From a bacterium (GTDB lineage: Bacteria; Patescibacteriota; Minisyncoccia; Moranbacterales; DUUL01), in NCBI GenBank assembly GCA_018675685.1, contig JABGXP010000010.1, forward strand, positions 113,427 through 149,889: a DNA stretch of 36,463 nucleotides, written 5' to 3'. The position numbers were made by a program, and so were the translations under genes. Under the pieces are notes generated by a model, which worked only from the letters and a program-made list of their open reading frames with translations, was not told the DNA's origin and searched no databases. Of the stretch, positions 17,688 to 29,619 are shown piece by piece; the first letter of the stretch is position 1, and every line of letters begins with the position of its first letter.

Positions 17688-19373
17688 TTATTGTCTCATA
17701 GTCCAAAAAGCCCCATTCACTTTAGGAGTAGTTAGTTTTTTAAAACTATTTTCAGGACACTTTTTTTGAAATTGTTTTCGTAATAAAAGCTTTGTTTCAT
17801 AGAAGACAATCAGGGAGTTTTCGCAATGAATTCCAGTAAGGCCTTCGCTCGGATGAATAAAAACATAATTTTTTATATCAGGAAAGCCTGAAAATTCAAG
17901 TGTCTTGAGAGTTTTTGTTTTTCTGTCAGCTGAGAATTCCACATGCTCGGGAATAATAATGAAATTATTCTCCTCCCGCTCTAATCCTCTGATTATTTTT
18001 CCAAAACTAACCTGATTTTCTTGAAACACTTCTTTGGTTTTAGTATCTTTTGCCCAAACCTCAAAATATAAATACACTTGAGAAAAGCCAGCTAGCACAA
18101 CCATTAAAATCAAACAAGAGATCGAAAATTGCAAAACACGCCAACGCCATTTTTTCATTGAAATTCTCGTGGAGAGTTTAAGTTTTTGATATATTTGAAT
18201 TAAATATTCAAATGGTATTATACAGAAAATAAAAATAGCTGGTATTGCCCAAATAAACTGTTTCGAACTCGGTTCTTGGTTTGAATTTAGTGATCCAATC
18301 AGCAATGCTGTAAGGAAAATTATTTGAGCAAGTGCGGAAGCATGAATGTTTTTTGGGACATTTGTTTTTTTAAATTGCCCAATGATAGAGAAGATAAAAC
18401 TTCGCATCGAAAGAAAAAATCCAAAAAGAAACAGAATGGACCAAGCGAGCGGAATGATTGGGAGAGAAGAATAATTATGAAGTTGATTAGAGTCACCCAA
18501 GTAAAATAACGAGCCAAAATAAGAAACCATATTCTTTATAGGGGAGAGATTAGAAGCATCGAAACTCAAAGCTCCCTTAAGACTATCTTGAAAAAGGTGA
18601 TGATCATTTTGCATTTGCAGAAGAAGCGGTACTGAAAAGAGTAAGATCGACATTGATAGGAACAGCAAATGTAGTTTGAAAAAACTAAGAAACTTCTTGT
18701 CCAAAAAAGAAAAATACAAAACAAGGAAAAATGGAAGCAGTAAGGAGAAAATCATCAAAGGATGTATCCAGAGACCAAGACCAATAGTTGCTCCGGATAA
18801 GACAAAGTAAAGATGTTTCTTTGAGAAAAATCCGCGCATCAATAAAAGAGAGAGCCAAGTGATGAGAAACGGAATAAAAATTTCAGAATAAGCGAGGCGC
18901 GAAAAATTTACATGCCAAAAGGAAAATGTCAAAAAAAATGTTCCCAAAAGTGCTAACCGATATGAAAAACGCAATTCTTTGAGTAGAAAAAAGAAGCCGA
19001 TAATCGTCAATATTCCAATAAAAGCACTTAGTAGCCTCAATGCGAAAATATTCATTCCAAAAATTCCGAAACTAACCGAAGTTAATTTCGTAAAAACACC
19101 CAATTCATATCCGTTTTGGACAAAAGAGTTTATAGTAGTTTCTTCATCATTTAAACCCAAGGCAAGAAGACCATAATTAGCCTCCGTTTCATGGAGTCCA
19201 GAGGGTATTTGCTCCAAGTTGTAAAATCTAAGAAAAGCACCAGAGAGTATAATAGCTAATAGCATTGTAATAACGAACAATTTTTTTCTTGTTAGAAAAA
19301 AATTGTTTATCCAAGGGATGAAATTATTAACAGTTGTTTTTTTATTTTCCACTTTTTTATTTTTATGAATCAA
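17688..19373 (-). CDS. GT39/ArnT-like polytopic membrane protein
   Basis: FLRFYNLEQIPSGLHETEANYGLLALGL, FSFWHVNFSRLAYSEIFIPFL; many TM segments. Confidence 0.8.
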   Translation of the reverse strand: MIHKNKKVENKKTTVNNFIPWINNFFLTRKKLFVITMLLAIILSGAFLRFYNLEQIPSGLHETEANYGLLALGLNDEETTINSFVQNGYELGVFTKLTSVSFGIFGMNIFALRLLSAFIGILTIIGFFFLLKELRFSYRLALLGTFFLTFSFWHVNFSRLAYSEIFIPFLITWLSLLLMRGFFSKKHLYFVLSGATIGLGLWIHPLMIFSLLLPFFLVLYFSFLDKKFLSFFKLHLLFLSMSILLFSVPLLLQMQNDHHLFQDSLKGALSFDASNLSPIKNMVSYFGSLFYLGDSNQLHNYSSLPIIPLAWSILFLFGFFLSMRSFIFSIIGQFKKTNVPKNIHASALAQIIFLTALLIGSLNSNQEPSSKQFIWAIPAIFIFCIIPFEYLIQIYQKLKLSTRISMKKWRWRVLQFSISCLILMVVLAGFSQVYLYFEVWAKDTKTKEVFQENQVSFGKIIRGLEREENNFIIIPEHVEFSADRKTKTLKTLEFSGFPDIKNYVFIHPSEGLTGIHCENSLIVFYETKLLLRKQFQKKCPENSFKKLTTPKVNGAFWTMRQ

Positions 19374-19402: not shown

Positions 19403-19431
19403 ATTATATTTCTTTTAATTGGTATTGTAAA
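19403..19431 (-). promoter_or_regulatory. Promoter for the GT39-like gene
   Basis: Reverse strand TTTACA-N17-TATAAT. Confidence 0.65.
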
Positions 19432-19447
19432 CAATATATGGTATAAT
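19419..19447 (+). promoter_or_regulatory. Promoter for the 19571-28442 operon
   Basis: TTGGTA-N17-TATAAT; overlaps the divergent promoter. Confidence 0.65.
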
Positions 19448-19570: not shown

Positions 19571-22500
19571 ATGCAAGAAAATAAAGACCAACAAGCAAAG
19601 TCTACTCCCATTGAAGGAGGGGATTCTTCAGGGAAAATTGAGCAACCTTCAGTTAAAAAAGAGGATATAATTACGGCATTTGAGAAAGTTTTTACACCAG
19701 ATGCAATCAATGATTATTTACGAAAATACACTGCAAATGAGAGAGTCGAACGAAAGGAGAAGCTAAGTAGCAATTTGATGAGCTTTGCTTCAGCATTAAA
19801 AGAGAAAGCCCAAAATGGGGAACTGAATTTGCAAAATGATGAAGAAGTTAAAAGTGCCCTTTGTGATTTATTAGAGAGTAAACGACTGGGTAGGTTGGTG
19901 AAGATAATTAAAGGGGAGGAAGTTGGACTAGTTGATGAGGACTTTATTCACGACATTGAAGATGCTGGTCTGGAAAAAAAAGATTCTTCAACCAAAGAGC
20001 AACACTCGAATGAGAGTGGGACTAATGAAAAAAATGAGGATATAAAAGATTCGACAGAGAAACCTAAGGCCATAGATTCGAACCAAGAATTTTTTGATAA
20101 AAACAAAATTAACCCTGACAAAGTCTATGTAAATAAATCCGATGGAAGACAAATGAAAGTGGTCGGTTTCGAGAATGGCAAAGCTCAAATTGTGTTTTTG
20201 CCAGCTGGAACAAAAGCAGATGAGAAGGGGGTTAATGTTATTAATCTAGACTCTGATTGGGTAGAAGGGCTTGACGATAAGCAAATAGAAGGCTCTAAGT
20301 TCGATGATTTTATGGCGGACTACCAAGAGGCTGGGGCTGGTGAGTTGGAAATTGGAGATAAGGAATTGAGAGGAAGTAGCACAACTAAGAAAGTCGATTC
20401 AATGGAGGTGGAAAAACTAGAAAAAGGGAAAGGTGAAGTTATAGGCCTCAATGGATTGACTGATTTGTTTGGGGTCACAGAATCAAAATATAGTTCAGCA
20501 GACGGAAAGGATCAACTTGAAATCACGGGATATTATTATAGAAAGGATGATACAGAGTGGGACATTAAAATCAAAGAGTCAGCTGATGCAAAGCCAAGAA
20601 AAGTTTCTCCGGAAGAATTAACAGCGCTACTTGCTGAAAAATATACTGAGCGAGAAATTTCGCCACAAGTAGAAGAAGTTATGAACAAGGGAGATTTTGA
20701 TTTTTTCCGTGATGAGTTTGGGCGAAATAAAGAGTTTGTGTATAAATCAGCAGAAACAGGAAACTCTTTTATGATTGTAAAACATAAATTTTCCAAGCAA
20801 CGCAAACAAAATCAAGTAAAAATTCTTTTAACAGATAAAAAAATTGGAGATAATCCAATTAGTTTTTGGGTGCTTACAAGAGGGGTTGGAGAATTAGCTA
20901 AGAAAGATGAGAGTGGCAAATATGTTCGAAGACCTGCAGGCGACCCAGAACCAAAAGAAGCACCAAAAGATACTACTGCACAAGAAGATGCCGTTGAAAA
21001 AGTTGACCAAGGAGAGGAGCAAGCAGCTTCCCCCAAAGACGCAACAACTCAGGACAAAATAGATAAGCTAGACGAGCAACTTGATGGAGCAAAAAACAAA
21101 GGGCCTGTTTTTGATAGCGTTAAAGCCGAAAAAGAATCATTAGAAGGGGAGAAAAATGATCTAGTGGATAAAGGAGAGGGGACTCCTGAGAAAAAAGAAA
21201 CTGGGAGTAAATTAGAGTCCGAACAAGAAGAAGGGAAGCAACAAGCAATGGACAAAAAATTTGAAACATGGAAAGAAGCTCAGGTTAATGTTGAAGAAAA
21301 GGGGAATAAATTAAATATTGTTAAAAGAAATCTCGCTAAACTGGGGATTTCCATGGGCGAAGATGCTGAAGCAATGAAGGAGCTAAAGGAAGCTAGGGAG
21401 GCGATGAAAGTAGCCGAGAGTGAGTTCAAAGCTTCTCATGGTGACTTCTCTCAAGAAACAACAGAAAGAAGAAAAGTGGCTCTAGAAAAAAGTAAGTACA
21501 AAAAAAAGGAGAAAAAAGAGTTGATGAGAGAGTTTATGCACAAAGAGAAAGTTGTTGATTCAGAAAGAATAGGTGAAGATGGTGAAAAAATTTCCGAAAA
21601 AATAAGTTTGATGCAGGATTTGAACAACAAAATGCTGGAGATGAATAAGGCAAGAATGGAGGCGCTGAGTAAGCGTGAAAAAGGCGTTGTCGGAAAATTG
21701 TTTGAAGGATACACCAAACTGTCTAAGAAGAAAAAAATTGCAATTGGCGTTATGCTAGCTGGTACAATCGGTGCAACAGGCGCTTTGGCTGGTGGCGCGG
21801 CAGTTGGTACAGCTGCAGGTGTGGCAGCTTCAACTGGCACCATGCGATTGGTTAGATCTTTGATTGGTGGTGCTGTAAGTGCTAAGGTTTTTAAATCAAG
21901 AGTGGATAAAGCTGCTCAAACTCGCGGGGTGAGGGAAGAAAACATTGAAAGAAGTGCCATGGGGAAATATTTAAAAGGAAAAGACATGGATATGGTCTCA
22001 ATGGTGCAAAAGAGAATGAAATTAGAGAAAAAAGATAATATCAAGGCGATGGCAGCAGCCGGAATCACTGGTTTTGCTGTGGGTGGTGGAGTGAAAGCTT
22101 TTACAGATCTTGAACTTTTTGATGCTGCTAGTTTTGAAACTGACGCGCCAGCAGCAGTTGATGACAGACCTCTTACAGAAAAATTAATGAGTAAAATAGG
22201 AGTTGATTATGACTCTGATAACGGTAATGCCAGATTTGTTGGAAGTGAACCTGAAAAAGAAGCTTTAGGCGAAACCAAGGAGCAGCCGAAATTAACAAAA
22301 GAAGAGCCAGTTGACACAAAAGAAGCTGAGCATAAAACCAAGGATCATGTTGACGGAGTTGATGCAAAGGACTCAGAGCATACCAAGGATTATATAGATA
22401 AAGAAGAGACAAGAAGCGATAAATCATTTACTGAGAGCATGGCCAAGATGAAATTGGCAGATGAAATTGCTGAGAAAATGGGCATCGAATTTGATCCAGA

Positions 22501-24925
22501 GCAAGGAAAGGCTAGTTTTGAAGGAAACGTGCCGACTGAGATTAATGGACAAGAAGTTTCAATGGAGATTCTAACAGAAGACCAACAAAAGAGTGTGCTT
22601 TCTGCGAGAGAGATGAGAGCGATGTCAGATGACTATGCTCTTTCTCGTGATGATGCTGAGAGGATTGCTGACTTTAGATTGGCTGATTCGCAAAAAATAA
22701 TGGTGAGCGCTGCTGATATAGCTAAGAAAATGGGAATTGAATTTGATCCAGAAAAAACTGTGGTTATGCAGGAATCAGGAGTGCCAACAACAATAGGAGA
22801 CAAGGAAGTCCCAATGGAATTGTTGACAGAAAAGCAACAAGGAAGCGTTAAATTCTCTAGAGAGATGGGCGACCTTGCAGAAAAAGTTTCCCTTGAAAGG
22901 AAGTTACCAGAATTCGGGAAAGTTTCAGAAAATCAGGTTTCACATCAGGAGTCTCCAGAGGAGAACTTATCGAAGGAAGGTGAAATTGGATCACAAGAAA
23001 AGAGTGAAGAAAATTTAGAAGTAGAAACGAAAATCCTAACTTCCAAAGAGTTGAGTCAAAAACTTGAAGGACTCAAGATTAATGAAAAAGACAGTGCCTG
23101 GAAAGCTCTTAGTGGGATGACGCTAAAGGAGCTGGAAAGCTTCCCAAAAACTCAAAGTGCGGCTGTTGATGCATGGAAGGCTGGAACCTTAAACTTACCA
23201 GAAGATGCAAGAGCCATCTTGGGCTTTGTTGACATCAGAGAGGCTGGAAGAATGGGAAAAATGGCAAGCATCATTGTTTCTGAAATTGACGATACAAAGA
23301 TTGATTCCTTAGAAGGAGTGACACTAGAAAATGCCCTCAGGGGTGATTTTGTCTCGACGAAAGAATTAATCCAACCAGAAGATCTCCCAATGGAAGAGAT
23401 GTCAGTTGAATTGAAAAAAGGCGAGAATGTTTGGCAGAAAGTTTCAGAGCACTATGATGGAGAGCAAGACAAGACAGCAAAAGTGATAGTTGCATTTGAA
23501 GAGAAGACCGTAAAAGAGTTACAACGAAGCGGAATGAGCGAACAAAAAGCTAAAGATTTTATTGATTGGAAATTTAGACATTTACCAGTTGGTCAAGATG
23601 TCGAATTAGATGAAAGTGGTTTGAGAGTCGAAGGATTCACTGATAAGAAAGGAATTAGGCAATTTGAGGCAAAATATGAGGCGCAGTCAGTAGAACCAAA
23701 GCCAGAGGCAATATTGGAGCCAAAAGAGCTTTCAGAGAGAGAATTAGCCGAAAAAGAGTACAATGAAATGCCGCCAGAGCAACGTGTCCATGAAGACAGT
23801 AGTCTCAAAATAGAAGAAATAAACGCAGTGGCTAATGATGAATTGATGAACGCTGGTTTGGAAATTAATTCCAAAACATGGAACCTAGTCAAGGGAATCT
23901 CAGTTGAAAAATTACTCAAAGAAATCCCAGCTGATGACAGAGATCCAGCTATCATTTATAAAGAACTAACAAAGCCTGGTCATCTAATTCAAATTGACGA
24001 GCTAAAGCAAGATGGATTCTTGGATGGCGTTAGTTATAAGGAATTTAAGGATTTGCAAAAAATTTCAAATATGATGAACGAGTGGACTCCTGACAAAGCT
24101 GAGATGGCAATGAAACTTGAGGATTATTTAAATCATCATGTTGAAGAATCGATAAATAGTGTGACACCAGGAAGTGCAGAAGAGCTTGCCCAAGATGTGG
24201 CAAGAGAAACTAGTGGTGAATTAAGAAACGCTGGCCTGGAAGTAGATTCTAGGACATGGGAGCTCACAAAAGGAATCTCAGTTGAAAAATTACTCAAAGA
24301 AATCCCAGCTGACGACAGAGATCCAGCCATCGTTTATAAGGAATTAACAGAATCCGGCAAGTTAATTCAAATTAATGAGCTGAAACAAGATGGATTCTTG
24401 GATGGCGTTAGTTATAAGGAATTTAAGGATTTGCAAAAAATTTCAAATATGATGAACGAGTGGACTCCTGACAAAGCTGAGATGGCAATGAGCCTAGAAG
24501 ACTATCTAGAGAGTCACGTCGAACAGTCCCTGGCTGATGTTCATGGAGAAGATGCAGGAAATATTGTGCAAGAAGTTGTCTCTCCTCAAGAAGAAATCGA
24601 TTCAGTGGGAAGCGATCTCTTCGAAAAAATGTCCTATCATGAAAGAATTGTTCTTGCTGAAACAAGCGGAAAGGACTTTTTGAGCTCTGTTAAAGTTGCT
24701 GCTGAGGAGGTCCAAAAATCGCCAAAGACAGCAACTCAGTTCTATCAAGAAAATCGCTTGGGAATTGAAATTGCTGATAAAATTCATGACAAAGGTGGAT
24801 TTGAAAAGGGGAATATTGAAGATAGTGTAAAAGAATATATAGAAAAAGGAAATACGGTAACAGAGGAAGAATTAAAAGGGTTAGCTAAGCTAATTGAAAA
24901 CGCTAAAAAGATAAATCGAAATTGA
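19571..24925 (+). CDS. Giant (1784 aa) charged repeat protein with Gly-rich hydrophobic segments
   Basis: Single uninterrupted ORF; repeats, Gly-zipper segment AIGVMLAGTIGATGALAGGAAVGTAAGVAAS, and a LysM-like segment ELKKGENVWQKVSEHY. Confidence 0.85.
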   Translation: MQENKDQQAKSTPIEGGDSSGKIEQPSVKKEDIITAFEKVFTPDAINDYLRKYTANERVERKEKLSSNLMSFASALKEKAQNGELNLQNDEEVKSALCDLLESKRLGRLVKIIKGEEVGLVDEDFIHDIEDAGLEKKDSSTKEQHSNESGTNEKNEDIKDSTEKPKAIDSNQEFFDKNKINPDKVYVNKSDGRQMKVVGFENGKAQIVFLPAGTKADEKGVNVINLDSDWVEGLDDKQIEGSKFDDFMADYQEAGAGELEIGDKELRGSSTTKKVDSMEVEKLEKGKGEVIGLNGLTDLFGVTESKYSSADGKDQLEITGYYYRKDDTEWDIKIKESADAKPRKVSPEELTALLAEKYTEREISPQVEEVMNKGDFDFFRDEFGRNKEFVYKSAETGNSFMIVKHKFSKQRKQNQVKILLTDKKIGDNPISFWVLTRGVGELAKKDESGKYVRRPAGDPEPKEAPKDTTAQEDAVEKVDQGEEQAASPKDATTQDKIDKLDEQLDGAKNKGPVFDSVKAEKESLEGEKNDLVDKGEGTPEKKETGSKLESEQEEGKQQAMDKKFETWKEAQVNVEEKGNKLNIVKRNLAKLGISMGEDAEAMKELKEAREAMKVAESEFKASHGDFSQETTERRKVALEKSKYKKKEKKELMREFMHKEKVVDSERIGEDGEKISEKISLMQDLNNKMLEMNKARMEALSKREKGVVGKLFEGYTKLSKKKKIAIGVMLAGTIGATGALAGGAAVGTAAGVAASTGTMRLVRSLIGGAVSAKVFKSRVDKAAQTRGVREENIERSAMGKYLKGKDMDMVSMVQKRMKLEKKDNIKAMAAAGITGFAVGGGVKAFTDLELFDAASFETDAPAAVDDRPLTEKLMSKIGVDYDSDNGNARFVGSEPEKEALGETKEQPKLTKEEPVDTKEAEHKTKDHVDGVDAKDSEHTKDYIDKEETRSDKSFTESMAKMKLADEIAEKMGIEFDPEQGKASFEGNVPTEINGQEVSMEILTEDQQKSVLSAREMRAMSDDYALSRDDAERIADFRLADSQKIMVSAADIAKKMGIEFDPEKTVVMQESGVPTTIGDKEVPMELLTEKQQGSVKFSREMGDLAEKVSLERKLPEFGKVSENQVSHQESPEENLSKEGEIGSQEKSEENLEVETKILTSKELSQKLEGLKINEKDSAWKALSGMTLKELESFPKTQSAAVDAWKAGTLNLPEDARAILGFVDIREAGRMGKMASIIVSEIDDTKIDSLEGVTLENALRGDFVSTKELIQPEDLPMEEMSVELKKGENVWQKVSEHYDGEQDKTAKVIVAFEEKTVKELQRSGMSEQKAKDFIDWKFRHLPVGQDVELDESGLRVEGFTDKKGIRQFEAKYEAQSVEPKPEAILEPKELSERELAEKEYNEMPPEQRVHEDSSLKIEEINAVANDELMNAGLEINSKTWNLVKGISVEKLLKEIPADDRDPAIIYKELTKPGHLIQIDELKQDGFLDGVSYKEFKDLQKISNMMNEWTPDKAEMAMKLEDYLNHHVEESINSVTPGSAEELAQDVARETSGELRNAGLEVDSRTWELTKGISVEKLLKEIPADDRDPAIVYKELTESGKLIQINELKQDGFLDGVSYKEFKDLQKISNMMNEWTPDKAEMAMSLEDYLESHVEQSLADVHGEDAGNIVQEVVSPQEEIDSVGSDLFEKMSYHERIVLAETSGKDFLSSVKVAAEEVQKSPKTATQFYQENRLGIEIADKIHDKGGFEKGNIEDSVKEYIEKGNTVTEEELKGLAKLIENAKKINRN
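23894..24150 (+). repeat. Repeat copy 1 within the giant ORF
   Basis: GISVEKLLKEIPADDRDPAIIYKELT...KISNMMNEWTPDKAEMAM; 24008-24113 identical to 24386-24491. Confidence 0.95.
24272..24528 (+). repeat. Repeat copy 2 within the giant ORF (offset 378 bp = 126 codons)
   Basis: GISVEKLLKEIPADDRDPAIVYKELT...KISNMMNEWTPDKAEMAM. Confidence 0.95.
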
Positions 24926-24950
24926 AATATAAACAATTAAAAAAAACAAA

Positions 24951-25319
24951 ATGTCTTTAAAAGAAAGTATTAAGGCGGCTCAAATTGATTTGATAAAAGA
25001 GCTTGGAATCAATGACCTTCCTCAAGAACAAAGAGAGGAAACACTCACCCAAATGAGTGAGGTTATTCAGCAGCGCATAGTACTACGAATCGTGGAAGAG
25101 CTTCCTGCTGACAAAAAAGAAGGGTTTGCAGACGTGGTAAACAATAGTGCTGAAGAACCAGAAGCTATTGATACATTCTTAACTGAAAATCTCCCCAATG
25201 TCGAAGAGCTTGTTTTGGAGGAGATCGGAAAGTATAAAGCAGAGATGTTGGAATTTGTGAGCAAATCTGCTGACAAAGAAACTGACCCCAAAGAAGCAAT
25301 TGAAGAGGGAGAAGAGTAA
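24951..25319 (+). CDS. DUF5663-like small acidic protein
   Basis: LIKELGINDLPQEQREETLTQMSEVIQQRIVLRIVEELP pattern, recalled as DUF5663-like; not searched. Confidence 0.65.
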   Translation: MSLKESIKAAQIDLIKELGINDLPQEQREETLTQMSEVIQQRIVLRIVEELPADKKEGFADVVNNSAEEPEAIDTFLTENLPNVEELVLEEIGKYKAEMLEFVSKSADKETDPKEAIEEGEE

Positions 25320-25355
25320 GATTTTTTAGATAATATAAATCAGTAAGCTAAAAAA

Positions 25356-25910
25356 ATGCCAGAGCAGGAAAAAACCATAAACAAGGAGGGGATGAGTGAG
25401 ACGCAAGATTTCGCAGAAAAATTAAAAAACTCTGACAGTGCTGCGACTGAAAAGGTTCATGATAAGAGTGAATTAGAGAAAATAATAAAGCGAAACCAAG
25501 AAAGGGTTCATAAAAGTGAAGCTACGCACAATAGTGTGCATGAAGAAATTGAACCAGTGCCGTCGCAGAGCGAAACTGCCATTGATAAGGTACATGAAAA
25601 AATTGAAACAACGCCTCCGTTGAAAAAAGTAGAAACAAAGAAAGACGAGGAGCAAAAGGAAAAGAAACAGGAAGAACAACAGAAGGAACATGTAAAGTTT
25701 CATGCAAAGGACATTGCTTTATCAGGAAGCCCAGATGATCAAATTTCAAAGATCGTTGACCTAGCTTCGAAGAAAGATCCATACTTTGCAATTAAAGTTG
25801 CAAAACACATTGATAATAACTATATTTTAGATAGAGTGCATGATCAATTGACTGAAGACCAGGTCAGGAAAGCGTTAATAGAAAAAGGACTATTAGAAAA
25901 CCTTGGGTAG
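25356..25910 (+). CDS. Hypothetical low-complexity protein with VH-containing repeats and a conserved-looking helical C-terminus
   Basis: KVHDKSE, RVHKSEA, SVHEEIE and KVHEKIE repeats; C-terminal YFAIKVAKHIDNNYILDRVHDQL. Confidence 0.7.
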   Translation: MPEQEKTINKEGMSETQDFAEKLKNSDSAATEKVHDKSELEKIIKRNQERVHKSEATHNSVHEEIEPVPSQSETAIDKVHEKIETTPPLKKVETKKDEEQKEKKQEEQQKEHVKFHAKDIALSGSPDDQISKIVDLASKKDPYFAIKVAKHIDNNYILDRVHDQLTEDQVRKALIEKGLLENLG

Positions 25911-25958
25911 TTGTTTAGTGAGAGAGAAATTAAAATAAAAATAAATTTTAAATAAAAA

Positions 25959-28442
25959 ATGATGGAGAGTTTGTTTTTTTGGCTTACGATTTTAAGTGGT
26001 TTTGCCATGCTTATTTCTGGTGGATGGCTTTTTCTCCAAACATATCTAAAGTTTAGAGCCCACTTAACACAATCTTTGAATCAAACACTTGACGTGATTA
26101 AGGTTGTTAAGCCCAAATCACCAGGTGGACAGTCTCCGGAAACAAAGGGTGCAGGAGAGAAGGAAGAAATTTCCAAGATGGAGCAATTACTAGGCTCGCT
26201 TTCTGACTTGCCTCAACATAAGGATTTTTTTCACAGAATAATCTTCGGGGAGCCACATCTTGCACTTGAAATAGCTGTGCCTTCTAATGACGAAAGTATT
26301 GTCTTTTATATTGCAGTGCCAACTCGTTTCAAAGAGGTTGTTGAGAAACAAATTCATAGTTTTTTCCCATCAGCACATATTGAAAAAGCACCAGAATACA
26401 CTATCTTTAGACCAGAAGGTGTCACTGTTGCAAGTCGCTTGAAATTAAAGAAAGATGACTCGTACCCAATAAAAACCTACCGACAACTTGAATCAGATCC
26501 CTTGCAGAACATTACCAATGCATTATCAAAACTTGAAAACAAAGAAGAAGGGGCAGTGGTGCAAATAATTATTCGTAGATCAGGAAAAAAGTGGAAAGAG
26601 AGAGGAACAAGAACTGCTCACAAAATGCAACAAGGTCAAAGACTCGGTGACGCTACTACCTCTAGAGCAGGAAATCTCGCCAAAGGCATTGGCTCTGAAA
26701 TGGCAGGAGCGATAACAGGAAAAGCGAGCGACAAAGGTGTTTCTTCGACTCCCGAACCAGTTTCATTGACTCCCGAAGAACAAGAAATTATCACAAGGCT
26801 AGAATCAAAAGTAAAGAAAGCACATTTCGAAACTAATGTTAGATTGATTGCATCTGCAGCAACAAAGGAGAGAGCAGAGATGATACTGGGGTCCATCGAA
26901 AATGCTTTCGTGCAATTTGAGGACACTAACTTGAATAAGTTCATAGCCATTAGAAATAAAGTTAAAAATGCTCACAAAATTGCATTCGATTATATTTTTA
27001 GAAATTTTTCAGAAAAACATCGCATGATCCTGGATACAGAAGAATTAGCTAGTATTTTTCATTTTCCAATTTCCACCACAGAAACTCCAAAAATAAGTTG
27101 GCTACAATCTAAGACATCACCACCTCCAACCAATATTCCAAAAGAGGGCTTGAGCGTTGGATTTAGTGATTTTCGAGGTTCAAAAACGGAAATAAAGTTA
27201 TCAGAAGATGACCGAAGAAGACATCTATATATTGTTGGACAAACAGGGACTGGAAAGTCTACCTTTATCGAAGAAATGGCGAAGCAGGATGCCGAAAAAA
27301 GAGGTATGTGTGTTATTGATCCACACGGAGATCTAATAGATCATATCTTAGAATCGATTCCAAAAGAGAGAGCAGAAGATGTGATTTACTTTGACCCTGC
27401 TGATATGGAAAGACCATTCTCTTTGAATATAATGGAGTATGACCTTAAGCGCCCTGAACAAAAAACTTTTGTAATCAACGAAACATTGGCAATTTTTGAT
27501 AAACTCTATGATTTGAAATCAACAGGAGGCCCAATGTTTGAACAATACATGCGTAATGCAATGTTACTAGTAATGGATAGCCCGGAAATAGGGTCGACAC
27601 TGATGGAAATTCCAAGAGTGTTTAGGGATCTTGAATTCAGAAAAGAAAAATTGAAACTCTGCAAAGACGCAACAGTAATTGATTTTTGGGAGAAAGAAGC
27701 TGAAAAAGCCGGAGGAGATGCTGCATTGGAAAATATTGCACCATACATTACTTCCAAATTGACGACATTCATCTCCAATGACATTATGAGGCCTATTATT
27801 TCTCAACAAAAGAGTACGCTTGATTTTCGAGAAATCATGGATCAAAAGAAAATCTTACTTGTGAATCTTTCAAAGGGAAAGATTGGTGAGATCAACAGTC
27901 ATCTCTTGGGAATGATCATCGTTGGAAAACTTTTGATGGCAGCATTGTCGAGAGTTGATATTGATGAAAAAGACCGAAAAGATTTCTATCTTTATATTGA
28001 TGAGTTCCAAAATTTCACAACTGATTCAATTTCTCAGATTTTAGCAGAGGCTAGGAAGTATCGCCTAGCACTTGTCATCGCCCATCAATTTATTGGACAA
28101 CTTTCTGATGATATTTCAAAGGCGGTGTTTGGTAATGTAGGCTCTCTCTGTTCATTTCGGGTTGGTTCAGAAGACGCAGAATTCCTTGAAAAACAGTTTG
28201 CACCAGAATTCGACGCTAGCGATTTAATTAACATTGCCAACTACCAGTGTTTCGCCAAGCTTCTAATGGACAATAAAACTTCAGCTGCCTTCGATATGAA
28301 GACCTATCCACCAAGCAAGGGAAGTTCAGAAATGAGAGAGGCTCTCAAAGAATTATCTAGATATAAATATGGTCGTGATCGTGAAATTGTAGAAGCAGAA
28401 ATCAGAAAAAGAGCTGGTTTGAAGGACTTGAGTAAAACTTAG
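25959..28442 (+). CDS. VirD4/TraG-like type IV secretion ATPase
   Basis: Walker A VGQTGTGKSTF, CVIDPHGDLIDHIL, Walker B FYLYIDEFQNF, VIAHQFIGQL; N-terminal TM. Confidence 0.88.
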   Translation: MMESLFFWLTILSGFAMLISGGWLFLQTYLKFRAHLTQSLNQTLDVIKVVKPKSPGGQSPETKGAGEKEEISKMEQLLGSLSDLPQHKDFFHRIIFGEPHLALEIAVPSNDESIVFYIAVPTRFKEVVEKQIHSFFPSAHIEKAPEYTIFRPEGVTVASRLKLKKDDSYPIKTYRQLESDPLQNITNALSKLENKEEGAVVQIIIRRSGKKWKERGTRTAHKMQQGQRLGDATTSRAGNLAKGIGSEMAGAITGKASDKGVSSTPEPVSLTPEEQEIITRLESKVKKAHFETNVRLIASAATKERAEMILGSIENAFVQFEDTNLNKFIAIRNKVKNAHKIAFDYIFRNFSEKHRMILDTEELASIFHFPISTTETPKISWLQSKTSPPPTNIPKEGLSVGFSDFRGSKTEIKLSEDDRRRHLYIVGQTGTGKSTFIEEMAKQDAEKRGMCVIDPHGDLIDHILESIPKERAEDVIYFDPADMERPFSLNIMEYDLKRPEQKTFVINETLAIFDKLYDLKSTGGPMFEQYMRNAMLLVMDSPEIGSTLMEIPRVFRDLEFRKEKLKLCKDATVIDFWEKEAEKAGGDAALENIAPYITSKLTTFISNDIMRPIISQQKSTLDFREIMDQKKILLVNLSKGKIGEINSHLLGMIIVGKLLMAALSRVDIDEKDRKDFYLYIDEFQNFTTDSISQILAEARKYRLALVIAHQFIGQLSDDISKAVFGNVGSLCSFRVGSEDAEFLEKQFAPEFDASDLINIANYQCFAKLLMDNKTSAAFDMKTYPPSKGSSEMREALKELSRYKYGRDREIVEAEIRKRAGLKDLSKT

Positions 28443-28450
28443 TAAATTTT

Positions 28451-28482
28451 AAAAACAGGCCACTTGCAAGTGGCCTGTTTTT
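28451..28482. terminator. Perfect bidirectional terminator between convergent genes
   Basis: AAAAACAGGCCACTTG-CAAGTGGCCTGTTTTT. Confidence 0.9.
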
Positions 28483-28497
28483 TATATAGAAAAGAGA

Positions 28498-29619
28498 TTA
28501 CAATTTTTCAATTTTTAAATTAGAGTCCGCCTCTAAATCTCTCCACGTTGTTTCTAGTTGATTCAAGAGGTCTAATTTTTTCATTTTGCGATACCTAACA
28601 AAAGCAGCAGCACCAATCATGGCTGCGTTGTCCCCGCAGAATTCCAAAGACGGTTTTAGAAACTTAATATCTGGAAACTCTTTCGCAATTTCATCCCCAA
28701 GAGTTTTCTGAAGGTGGGAGTTTGCAGAGACGCCACCAGCTAGAACCACTGTTTCTGGTGATAGCTCTTCAGTAGCCTTTTTTGTTTTCTTAACCAAGAC
28801 GTCAATTGCTGCAGTTTGAAATGCTTTGCAAATAGCCATTTTTTCTAATTCTGAAATTTTCTCAACCCCTTTTTTCTTTTGAAGTTCTTCGATGAAATAA
28901 AGAACAGACGTCTTCAGTCCAGAGAAGGAGAAATTGAAATCACCGCTTGCGAGCATTGGTCGAGGAAACTCGATTGATTCAAGTTTAGCTAATAATTTTT
29001 GATCTGAGATTTTTTCTTTTGCACTTTCAAAATCATTTGCAAACTTAGAAACAATTGGTCCTCCTGGATACCCAAGTCCAAGCATTTTAGCGACCTTGTC
29101 AAAGGCTTCACCAACAGCATCATCCTGTGTTTGTCCAATAATTTCATAATCCAGATGATCTTTCATCAAAATTAATTGAGTATGTCCGCCTGAAACGGTT
29201 AGTGCAAGCATGGGAAAAGTAATTTCATCGACAGAGTGTCCAATAACATTTGCATAGAGATGACCTTCTACGTGGTGAATTCCCATAAGTGGGATTTGGC
29301 GTGTGTATGCCAAAGTTTTTGCAGCGTTTGTTCCAATTAAAAGTGCTGGGATTAATCCAGGGCCCTGAGTAACTGCGATAAGGTCAATATCATCCAAGGT
29401 AGCATTGCTTGTCAAAAGAGCCTCATCGAGAACAGGTGTAATATTTTTGAGATGTTCTCGCGCTGCAAGGTTTGGAACAACCCCGCCCCACTTAGCATGA
29501 ATCTCGATTTGAGAAGAAACAATGTTGGCAAGCAGTTTAATCTCATTAATCACTTCATCACAATCCAAAATTGCAACGGAAGTTTCATCACAAGAAGTTT
29601 CAATAGCAAGAATTTTCAT
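28498..29619 (-). CDS. tsaD: tRNA N6-adenosine threonylcarbamoyltransferase
   Basis: MKILAIETSCDETSVAI, HHVEGHLYAN, TVSGGHTQL, VLAGGVSANSHL, CGDNAAMIG. Confidence 0.97.
   Translation of the reverse strand: MKILAIETSCDETSVAILDCDEVINEIKLLANIVSSQIEIHAKWGGVVPNLAAREHLKNITPVLDEALLTSNATLDDIDLIAVTQGPGLIPALLIGTNAAKTLAYTRQIPLMGIHHVEGHLYANVIGHSVDEITFPMLALTVSGGHTQLILMKDHLDYEIIGQTQDDAVGEAFDKVAKMLGLGYPGGPIVSKFANDFESAKEKISDQKLLAKLESIEFPRPMLASGDFNFSFSGLKTSVLYFIEELQKKKGVEKISELEKMAICKAFQTAAIDVLVKKTKKATEELSPETVVLAGGVSANSHLQKTLGDEIAKEFPDIKFLKPSLEFCGDNAAMIGAAAFVRYRKMKKLDLLNQLETTWRDLEADSNLKIEKL

What the first reader, a model, noticed from the sequence alone, without database searches (positions are those of the whole stretch)
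19571..28442. Four-gene unit: 1784-aa repeat protein, DUF5663-like protein, VH-repeat protein and VirD4-like ATPase
Seen: four same-strand genes with gaps of only about 25-50 nt and no hairpin between them, a promoter upstream (19419-19447) and a perfect terminator downstream (28451-28482). The last gene has Walker A and B motifs and a VirD4/TraG-like layout with an N-terminal TM. Known: VirD4-type ATPases recruit substrates to secretion or conjugation channels. Inference: the giant acidic protein and its two small partners could be substrate, scaffold or adaptor for a CPR-specific translocation or cell-contact machine. No VirB4, relaxase or pilin gene is visible in this window.
Basis: partly seen in the sequence, partly recalled or inferred. 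Interest (0 to 1): 0.75.

Follow-up and report, generated by a model that had tools for sequence, protein, structure and literature searches.

The report
Detached secretion-ATPase unit with giant protein
In a lineage of ultra-small Patescibacteria, a secretion-type motor is always encoded apart from its secretion machine, usually together with a giant membrane protein and two small proteins; in other lineages the giant and one of the small proteins sit inside the secretion machine's own gene cluster, which suggests an overlooked part of the apparatus these bacteria may use on their hosts.

Summary
Four same-strand genes (giant 1784 aa, DUF5663 122 aa, small 184 aa, ATPase 827 aa) lie with 25-48 nt gaps, then a strong terminator. 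The unit is an ancient block: in 34 genomes of the order, DUF5663 lies just upstream of the ATPase in 29 and the small gene in 32. The ATPase is in 285 of 287 genomes across the phylum. It is a VirD4/TrwB-type motor behind a long N-terminal domain, with no VirB4, relaxase or pilin nearby; the same genome carries a separate PrgI-VirB4-pilin T4SS cluster. New here: giant+DUF5663 is a movable pair. Outside the order it sits near VirD4 in about six families, and inside or beside the PrgI-TrsD-VirB4 cluster in four others. The giant is predicted N-in/C-out: coiled coil, two-TM hairpin, basic loop, third TM, acidic outer part with a LysM-like segment. Most likely it is a wall- or contact-facing component of a patescibacterial T4SS coupling complex; a giant secreted substrate with a DUF5663 chaperone is the main rival. 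I found no paper on DUF5663. Function is inferred from gene context, and a published Tn-seq screen found VirD4 non-essential in one species.

The parts
19571..24925 (+). giant acidic membrane protein, 1784 aa
   Evidence: ORF; large same-strand ORF at the same place in 19 of 20 order loci, 493-2033 aa; shared membrane core; dN much below dS in residues 716-1784, where dS could be estimated
19571..21730 (+). giant, predicted cytoplasmic N-terminal part (residues 1-720), ending in a helical/coiled-coil stretch
   Evidence: hydropathy and charge; helical model of a homologue's corresponding region
21737..21892 (+). giant, glycine-rich two-helix membrane hairpin (residues 723-774)
   Evidence: hhalign to the order's core profile at residues 707-827, E 1.3e-7
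22052..22102 (+). giant, third TM segment (residues 828-844) after a basic loop; residues after it are predicted outside
   Evidence: net charge +7 before TM1, +7 in the loop, -8 after TM3
22397..22849 (+). giant, first internal repeat pair (residues 943-1009 and 1027-1093, 49% identical)
23405..23605 (+). giant, LysM-like segment (residues about 1279-1345)
   Evidence: motif resembles that of giants of other lineages; a homologue's segment is modelled E-H-H-H-E at pLDDT about 85-90; no significant database match
23813..24541 (+). giant, second internal repeat pair (residues 1415-1531 and 1541-1657, 77% identical)
24951..25319 (+). DUF5663 protein, 122 aa, acidic
   Evidence: PF18908 E 1.4e-7; upstream of VirD4 in 29 of 34 order genomes; pairs with a large protein elsewhere in the phylum
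25356..25910 (+). small partner protein, 184 aa ('VH' protein); conserved C-terminal domain at about 25689-25907
   Evidence: homologue directly upstream of VirD4 in 32 of 34 order genomes; alignment
25959..28442 (+). VirD4/TrwB-type ATPase, 827 aa: one N-terminal TM, a ~300-aa N-domain, then motor with an all-alpha insertion
27237..27260 (+). Walker A (GQTGTGKS)
   Evidence: T429, G430, G432 and K433 invariant
27999..28004 (+). Walker B acidic pair D681-E682
   Evidence: invariant in 34 orthologues
28451..28482 (.). intrinsic terminator shared with the convergent tsaD
17688..19373 (-). divergent PMT-family mannosyltransferase; conserved neighbour, membership of the unit uncertain
   Evidence: PF02366 E 8e-8; a homologue lies just upstream on the other strand in most of the 20 order loci

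Best explanation
The block encodes a detached coupling module of the patescibacterial type IV secretion system. The 827-aa protein is the motor, a VirD4/TrwB-type ATPase (presumably a hexamer, as TrwB is) anchored by one N-terminal helix. The 184-aa protein is its small dedicated partner, encoded directly upstream. The giant is an envelope-spanning protein: a cytoplasmic acidic and coiled-coil half, three membrane segments, and a long acidic outer half with a LysM-like segment and repeats. DUF5663 is its small cytoplasmic partner or chaperone. Giant+DUF5663 would link the cytoplasmic motor(s) to the cell wall or to the contact site with the host, as a structural component rather than a cargo. 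Shown here: gene order, co-conservation, motor family, and independent linkage of the pair to VirD4 and to VirB4/PrgI/pilin clusters. Predicted: membrane anatomy. Inferred: physical interaction, wall binding, and action with the VirB4 apparatus encoded elsewhere in the genome.
For: The block is conserved through the order. The ATPase occurs in 285 of 287 phylum genomes. DUF5663 lies beside a same-strand gene of 800 aa or more in 21 of 38 cases, against 3 of 115 distant small genes in the same loci. Giant+DUF5663 sits in or by T4SS clusters: PrgI-TrsD-VirB4-DUF5663-giant-pilin-like-VirB6-like in L171/L112; giant-DUF5663-PrgI-TrsD-VirB4 with pilins further on in L163 and L164; DUF5663-giant-872 aa-PrgI-TrsD-VirB4 in L165. 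It sits by VirD4 outside the order in L111/L119, L138/L139, L172, L173, L174 and, less closely, L175. VirB4 or VirD4 lies within 3.5 kb in 11 of 69 genomes against about 1.4 expected, p about 2e-7. Giants beside VirD4 in two other lineages share sequence with giants of this order or of its relatives (L173 with L052; L172 via L136/L137). The ATPase model matches VirB4/TrwK over its full length (E 6e-14) and TrwB over the motor (TM-score about 0.64). A T4SS is in the genome. Topology signal.
Against: In this order none of the four genes is in the T4SS cluster. In Ca. S. epibionticum the T4SS is essential but its VirD4 homologue is not (PMC12102498, citing PMC10633639). Some order giants have fewer or no clear TM segments (L040, L041, L048, L052, L053, L055, L056), and in L039 neither DUF5663 nor the small gene is found and no giant is recognised. 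LysM support is below significance. The T4SS-linked giants L163-L165 share context and size with the window's giant but no detectable sequence similarity. One large neighbour of DUF5663 (L132) carries a glycosyltransferase domain.
Confidence: 0.55

Rival explanations
1. The giant is a secreted substrate (a very large, fast-evolving effector with TM segments), DUF5663 is its chaperone, and VirD4 with its small partner is the receptor that feeds it to the T4SS.
For: The giant evolves fast (52% identity to its nearest homologue against 86% for VirD4), varies from 493 to 2033 aa and carries repeats. A small acidic partner next door is typical of effector-chaperone pairs (general knowledge). About a third of T4SS effectors of intracellular Gram-negative pathogens carry TM segments (abstract of PMC12981334).
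Against: One giant locus in each order genome examined and one DUF5663 in the window's genome, not a repertoire; the membrane core is the most conserved part (67% identity) and has a consistent N-in/C-out charge pattern; no toxin or enzyme domain found in the core-family giants scanned.
Confidence: 0.2
2. The VirD4-type ATPase has been exapted for DNA handling or uptake, HerA- or Ced-like, unrelated to the VirB4 T4SS; the giant is an envelope protein that happens to share its operon in this order.
For: VirD4 is non-essential in S. epibionticum while the T4SS is essential (PMC12102498). HerA and CedD models also hit the ATPase. In the eight T4SS regions of this order examined, VirD4 is never present.
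Against: TrwB_AAD_bind scores better than HerA profiles and TrwB superposes better on the motor; giant+DUF5663 connects VirD4 loci and VirB4 loci in separate lineages.
Confidence: 0.2
3. Coincidental operon: an unrelated structural surface protein placed next to a universal ATPase gene, without functional tie.
For: Across the phylum VirD4 usually lacks the giant beside it, and the small gene upstream of VirD4 differs by lineage.
Against: About seven lineages place the pair by VirD4 and four by VirB4, well above chance.
Confidence: 0.05

Closest known systems
VirD4/TrwB-type type IV coupling proteins (T4CP)
   Same: P-loop motor with all-alpha insertion; Pfam TrwB_AAD_bind and T4SS-DNA_transf; TrwB fold (TM-score about 0.64 on the target)
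   Different: One N-terminal TM instead of two; ~300-aa N-domain before the motor; no relaxase or VirB operon beside it; encoded with a giant protein
VirB4/TrwK and the Patescibacteria MPF_FATA-like T4SS (PMC12102498)
   Same: Foldseek's best full-length match is VirB4/TrwK; the genome has a PrgI-TrsD-VirB4-pilin cluster; giant+DUF5663 sits in such clusters elsewhere
   Different: The ATPase is not VirB4 by Pfam or by profile comparison; the unit is physically separate in this order; the paper reports VirD4 homologues far from virB4 but its main text does not mention DUF5663
DUF5663 (PF18908)
   Same: Window protein is above the Pfam cut-off
   Different: No function known; no paper in the searched library mentions it
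T4CP complexes with small partners: H. pylori Cagbeta-CagZ, Legionella DotL-IcmSW
   Same: VirD4-type ATPase with small dedicated partner proteins (Cagbeta structures matched)
   Different: No sequence relation shown for DUF5663 or the 184-aa protein; the analogy rests on general knowledge and abstracts
LysM domain proteins
   Same: KGDSVWKMA...VGQxIDF motif after the last TM; strand-helix-helix-strand order in the model
   Different: Below significance in Pfam, PDB sequence and Foldseek searches; carries an extra helix

Membership tests
VirD4/TrwB T4CP | Walker A/B P-loop motor of the TrwB/TraG type | tested here: met
VirD4/TrwB T4CP | All-alpha domain inserted in the motor | tested here: met
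   All-helical stretch at residues 501-614 in the AF2 model and TrwB superposition
VirD4/TrwB T4CP | N-terminal membrane anchor of two TM helices with a small loop, motor directly after | tested here: not met
   One N-terminal TM (residues 1-19 by hydropathy; helix 2-40) and a ~300-aa domain before the motor
VirD4/TrwB T4CP | Recruits substrate to a VirB4-type T4SS | not testable with these tools
   A T4SS is present in the genome; no interaction data
VirB4 ATPase | VirB4 profile match over the cut-off | tested here: not met
   TIGR00929 E 0.0018, far below cut-off; profile comparison with own VirB4 fails, although Foldseek's best full-length match is VirB4
MPF_FATA-like T4SS locus | VirB4, PrgI/VirB3, VirB6 and pilin genes together | tested here: not met
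   VirB4 absent from the window; PrgI, VirB4 and T4SS pilin are on contig C18
Conjugation locus | Relaxase next to the coupling protein | tested here: not met
   No relaxase family among the block's proteins or the flanking genes scanned
HerA/FtsK DNA translocase | HerA equivalog profile above curated cut-off and NurA partner | tested here: not met
   HerA equivalogs far below cut-off; no NurA among the gene products scanned with Pfam
DUF5663 (PF18908) | Match over the gathering score | tested here: met
   32.4 bits against 23.7
LysM domain (giant) | Significant LysM profile or fold match | tested here: inconclusive
   E 0.02 in one homologue, 0.15 in PDB sequences, none by Foldseek; topology suggestive

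The most novel reading that the evidence does not exclude
Patescibacteria have a type of T4SS coupling complex not described before. A VirD4-type motor, encoded away from the secretion apparatus, works with a giant membrane-spanning, wall-binding protein and its DUF5663 partner, which form the envelope or host-contact part of the machine in place of the subunits (VirB8-like proteins, adhesins) that are rarely or never found in these monoderm T4SSs.
Probability: 0.3. Interest if true: 0.85.

Novelty: new variant of a known kind. Interest (0 to 1): 0.62.

Why it matters
The T4SS of Patescibacteria is the first T4SS described as essential for its owner's survival (PMC12857230), yet its coupling protein, substrates and envelope parts are unknown, and one study found no recognisable coupling protein in the T4SS of Ca. 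S. epibionticum (PMC10633639). This block gives two unannotated families (DUF5663 and its giant partner) a testable place in that machine. It also explains why searches near virB4 can miss them: they are often encoded elsewhere, and the giant changes in length and sequence very fast.

Tried and rejected
Pfam, NCBIfam and PADLOC give no credible domain for the giant or the 184-aa protein; the weak hits (PHA synthase, SctL, DUF2207_C and others) were rejected as low-complexity matches. A VirB4-type N-domain in the ATPase is suggested by Foldseek's full-length match, but profile comparison with own VirB4 and TrsD gives nothing, so it is not claimed. An iterated LysM-like profile drifted into peptide deformylase and was discarded. 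Foldseek of the giant's core gave only chance coiled-coil matches (model pLDDT 55). A DUF5663 scan of genome contigs returned only two close relatives. The idea that DUF5663 is always tied to VirD4 was rejected: outside the order it usually is not. The idea that the same small 184-aa family precedes VirD4 everywhere was rejected: it was recognised in only 2 of 20 other lineages, where different small genes occupy the place. A frameshift or assembly error as the cause of the split second VirD4 was rejected because a similar split recurs in many genomes.
Full report
Observation. The terminator at 28451-28482 is strong (dG -21 kcal/mol, z -6.1) and can serve tsaD as well, which ends at 28498 on the other strand. 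The promoter is only a consensus match in a region where such matches are common, and a better one on the other strand faces the divergent mannosyltransferase. The flanking genes scanned are ordinary chromosomal genes: class II tRNA synthetases, D-Ala ligase, TsaD, Lgt, DUF4012.

Proteins. The 122-aa protein is DUF5663 (E 1.4e-7). The ATPase matches TrwB_AAD_bind (1.2e-9), HerA/DUF87 (1.8e-7) and T4SS-DNA_transf (3.3e-5); no other Pfam family explains it better. The giant and the 184-aa protein have no known domain. The '.VH.' motifs of the 184-aa protein are not conserved; its C-terminal ~75 residues are.

Conservation in the order. ATPase matches were found in 57 of 57 genomes of the order, nearly all with a full-length orthologue at 55-86% identity. 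I oriented 20 loci, from nine families by the tool's labels: a large same-strand ORF lies just upstream of the small genes in 19 of 20. Over the distinct genomes with the near flank in hand (30 with short flanks plus 4 more from the long ones, 34 in all), DUF5663 is directly upstream in 29 and the 184-aa family in 32. Four of the five genomes without a recognised DUF5663 belong to the window's own family (G002, G003, G004, G006); the fifth is G018. A PMT-family glycosyltransferase is divergently placed upstream in most loci. Between the window and its nearest relative the ATPase is 86% identical, DUF5663 69%, the 184-aa protein 54% and the giant 52%, with the giant's membrane region its most conserved part (67%). 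dN is far below dS in the giant's residues 716-1784; elsewhere dS is saturated.

Anatomy of the giant. A profile seeded on one order giant (coiled coil plus membrane region) recruits 11 order giants and four large proteins from other lineages (L108, L120, L134, L138), each directly beside DUF5663, and no other neighbourhood gene. The window's giant joins it by profile comparison at residues 707-827 (E 1.3e-7). Most core-bearing giants have the same plan: a positively charged stretch, two adjacent hydrophobic segments, a neutral-to-basic loop usually of 50-90 residues, a third hydrophobic segment, then an acidic C-terminal part (net -87 in the window). This predicts N-in/C-out. After the third segment comes a LysM-like motif shared by giants of several lineages. 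In the model of one homologue this segment is confident (pLDDT about 85-90) and has strand-helix-helix-strand order with an extra helix, but no library search is significant, so wall binding is a prediction. The window's giant has two internal duplications, both in the predicted outer part. Seven order giants have fewer or no clear TM segments.

The motor. The AF2 model (pLDDT 79, 34 sequences) has one N-terminal helix, a mixed alpha/beta domain to about residue 395, then a motor with an all-helical insertion. Foldseek ranks VirB4/TrwK first over the full length (E 6e-14, high rmsd), with HerA close behind, and superposes the motor on TrwB (TM-score about 0.64 on the target, rmsd about 6 A). 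Sequence profiles do not connect the N-domain to VirB4 or TrsD, but connect it clearly to the second VirD4-like protein of the same genome (99.5% probability).

The T4SS is elsewhere in the genome. Contig C18 carries PrgI (7.5e-10), a TrsD-like gene, VirB4 (P-loop_TraG 1e-30) and a T4SS pilin (1.2e-8). None of the four block genes occurs in the T4SS regions of the order that were fetched (L063-L070 and shorter L057-L062), and no VirB4 occurs in the 40 VirD4 loci. This fits the published survey: 5,713 VirD4 homologues in 2,918 Patescibacteria genomes, only 148 near virB4, and a VirD4 homologue that is not essential in Ca. S. epibionticum although the T4SS is (PMC12102498).

The movable pair. 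In an even draw of 287 phylum genomes, PF18908 was found in 69 and the ATPase in 285. Around 38 DUF5663 genes, a same-strand gene of 800 aa or more lies within two genes in 21, against 3 of 115 distant small genes in the same loci and 18 of 118 in other loci. One of these large neighbours carries a glycosyltransferase domain (L132), so size alone is not proof; sequence similarity among giants was checked separately. Outside the order the pair lies by VirD4 in L111 and L119 (giant-DUF5663-VirD4; a small gene lies between in L111, an antisense ORF was called there in L119), L138/L139, L172 (VirD4-giant-DUF5663), L173, L174 and, about 10 kb off, L175. It lies in or by the T4SS cluster in L171/L112 (PrgI-TrsD-VirB4-DUF5663-giant-pilin-like-VirB6-like-second VirB4 set), L163 and L164 (giant-DUF5663-PrgI-TrsD-VirB4, pilins further on) and L165 (DUF5663-giant-872 aa-PrgI-TrsD-VirB4). 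The PrgI calls in L163-L165 and the pilin calls in L163 and L164 are above Pfam cut-offs; the DUF5663 calls in L163-L165 are below the Pfam cut-off but strong with the profile built here without them (1e-11 to 2e-18). Within 3.5 kb, VirB4 or VirD4 is found for 11 of 69 genomes against about 1.4 expected, p about 2e-7; counting families once gives p about 4e-5 (a simple binomial estimate with hand-counted cases and an approximate number of families). The giant beside VirD4 in L173 resembles an order giant (L052); that of L172 is linked through L136 and L137 to the core family; that of L171 belongs to a second giant family with L109, L118 and L132.

Small genes upstream of VirD4. Elsewhere in the phylum VirD4 usually follows a short same-strand gene, often overlapping or within a few bases, but mostly of other families. 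A small VirD4 partner may be the rule, with the family changing by lineage.

Mechanism. The linkage pattern (pair with VirD4 in some lineages, with VirB4/PrgI/pilin in others) is what one expects of a component of one machine whose genes are scattered. I therefore read the block as a coupling module of the patescibacterial T4SS, with the giant as an envelope-spanning structural part and DUF5663 as its partner. The main alternatives are a giant secreted substrate with its chaperone, and a VirD4 exapted for DNA work. Nothing here shows interaction, topology or transport directly.

Novelty. No paper in the searched library mentions DUF5663 or PF18908, and the main text of the Patescibacteria T4SS survey does not mention DUF5663; supplements could not be read and most subscription papers are not in the library. 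The motor belongs to a known kind; the unit and the giant pair are new as a described arrangement, as far as I could search.

Noticed in passing
L005:10284-13562 (G000:C9:30283-33561): A second VirD4-like ATPase is split into two adjacent ORFs (466 aa N-domain; 601 aa motor with a C-terminal treble-clef zinc finger, PF23477 E 9e-12). In most genomes of the order the N-part and motor of this paralogue are likewise matched as separate pieces.
   Followed up: partly
window:17688-19373 and relatives L037-L056: One or two PMT-family mannosyltransferase genes lie divergently upstream of the giant in most order loci; they could glycosylate its outer part.
   Followed up: partly
L112/L171, L168, L169: Several genomes of one family carry two VirB4 (and TrsD) sets in one T4SS region.
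   Followed up: no
L121-L127, L129: In one part of the phylum DUF5663 sits next to an IF-2 (infB) gene, with fmt- and def-like genes on the other side, often without a giant.
   Followed up: no
L141-L160, gene directly upstream of VirD4: The small gene before VirD4 belongs to several dissimilar families in other lineages, one with a conserved IPGVNxFFLEQEAKIKTDRI motif.
   Followed up: partly
L144, L173, L175: In some lineages the second VirD4-like ATPase lies within a few genes of the first.
   Followed up: no
L039 (G003): One genome of the window's family has VirD4 without a recognised giant, DUF5663 or 184-aa gene; other genes occupy the place.
   Followed up: no
L063:6632-9610: A 992-aa protein with a signal-peptide-like start and a C-terminal hydrophobic stretch lies directly before the T4SS pilin; no Pfam match.
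   Followed up: no
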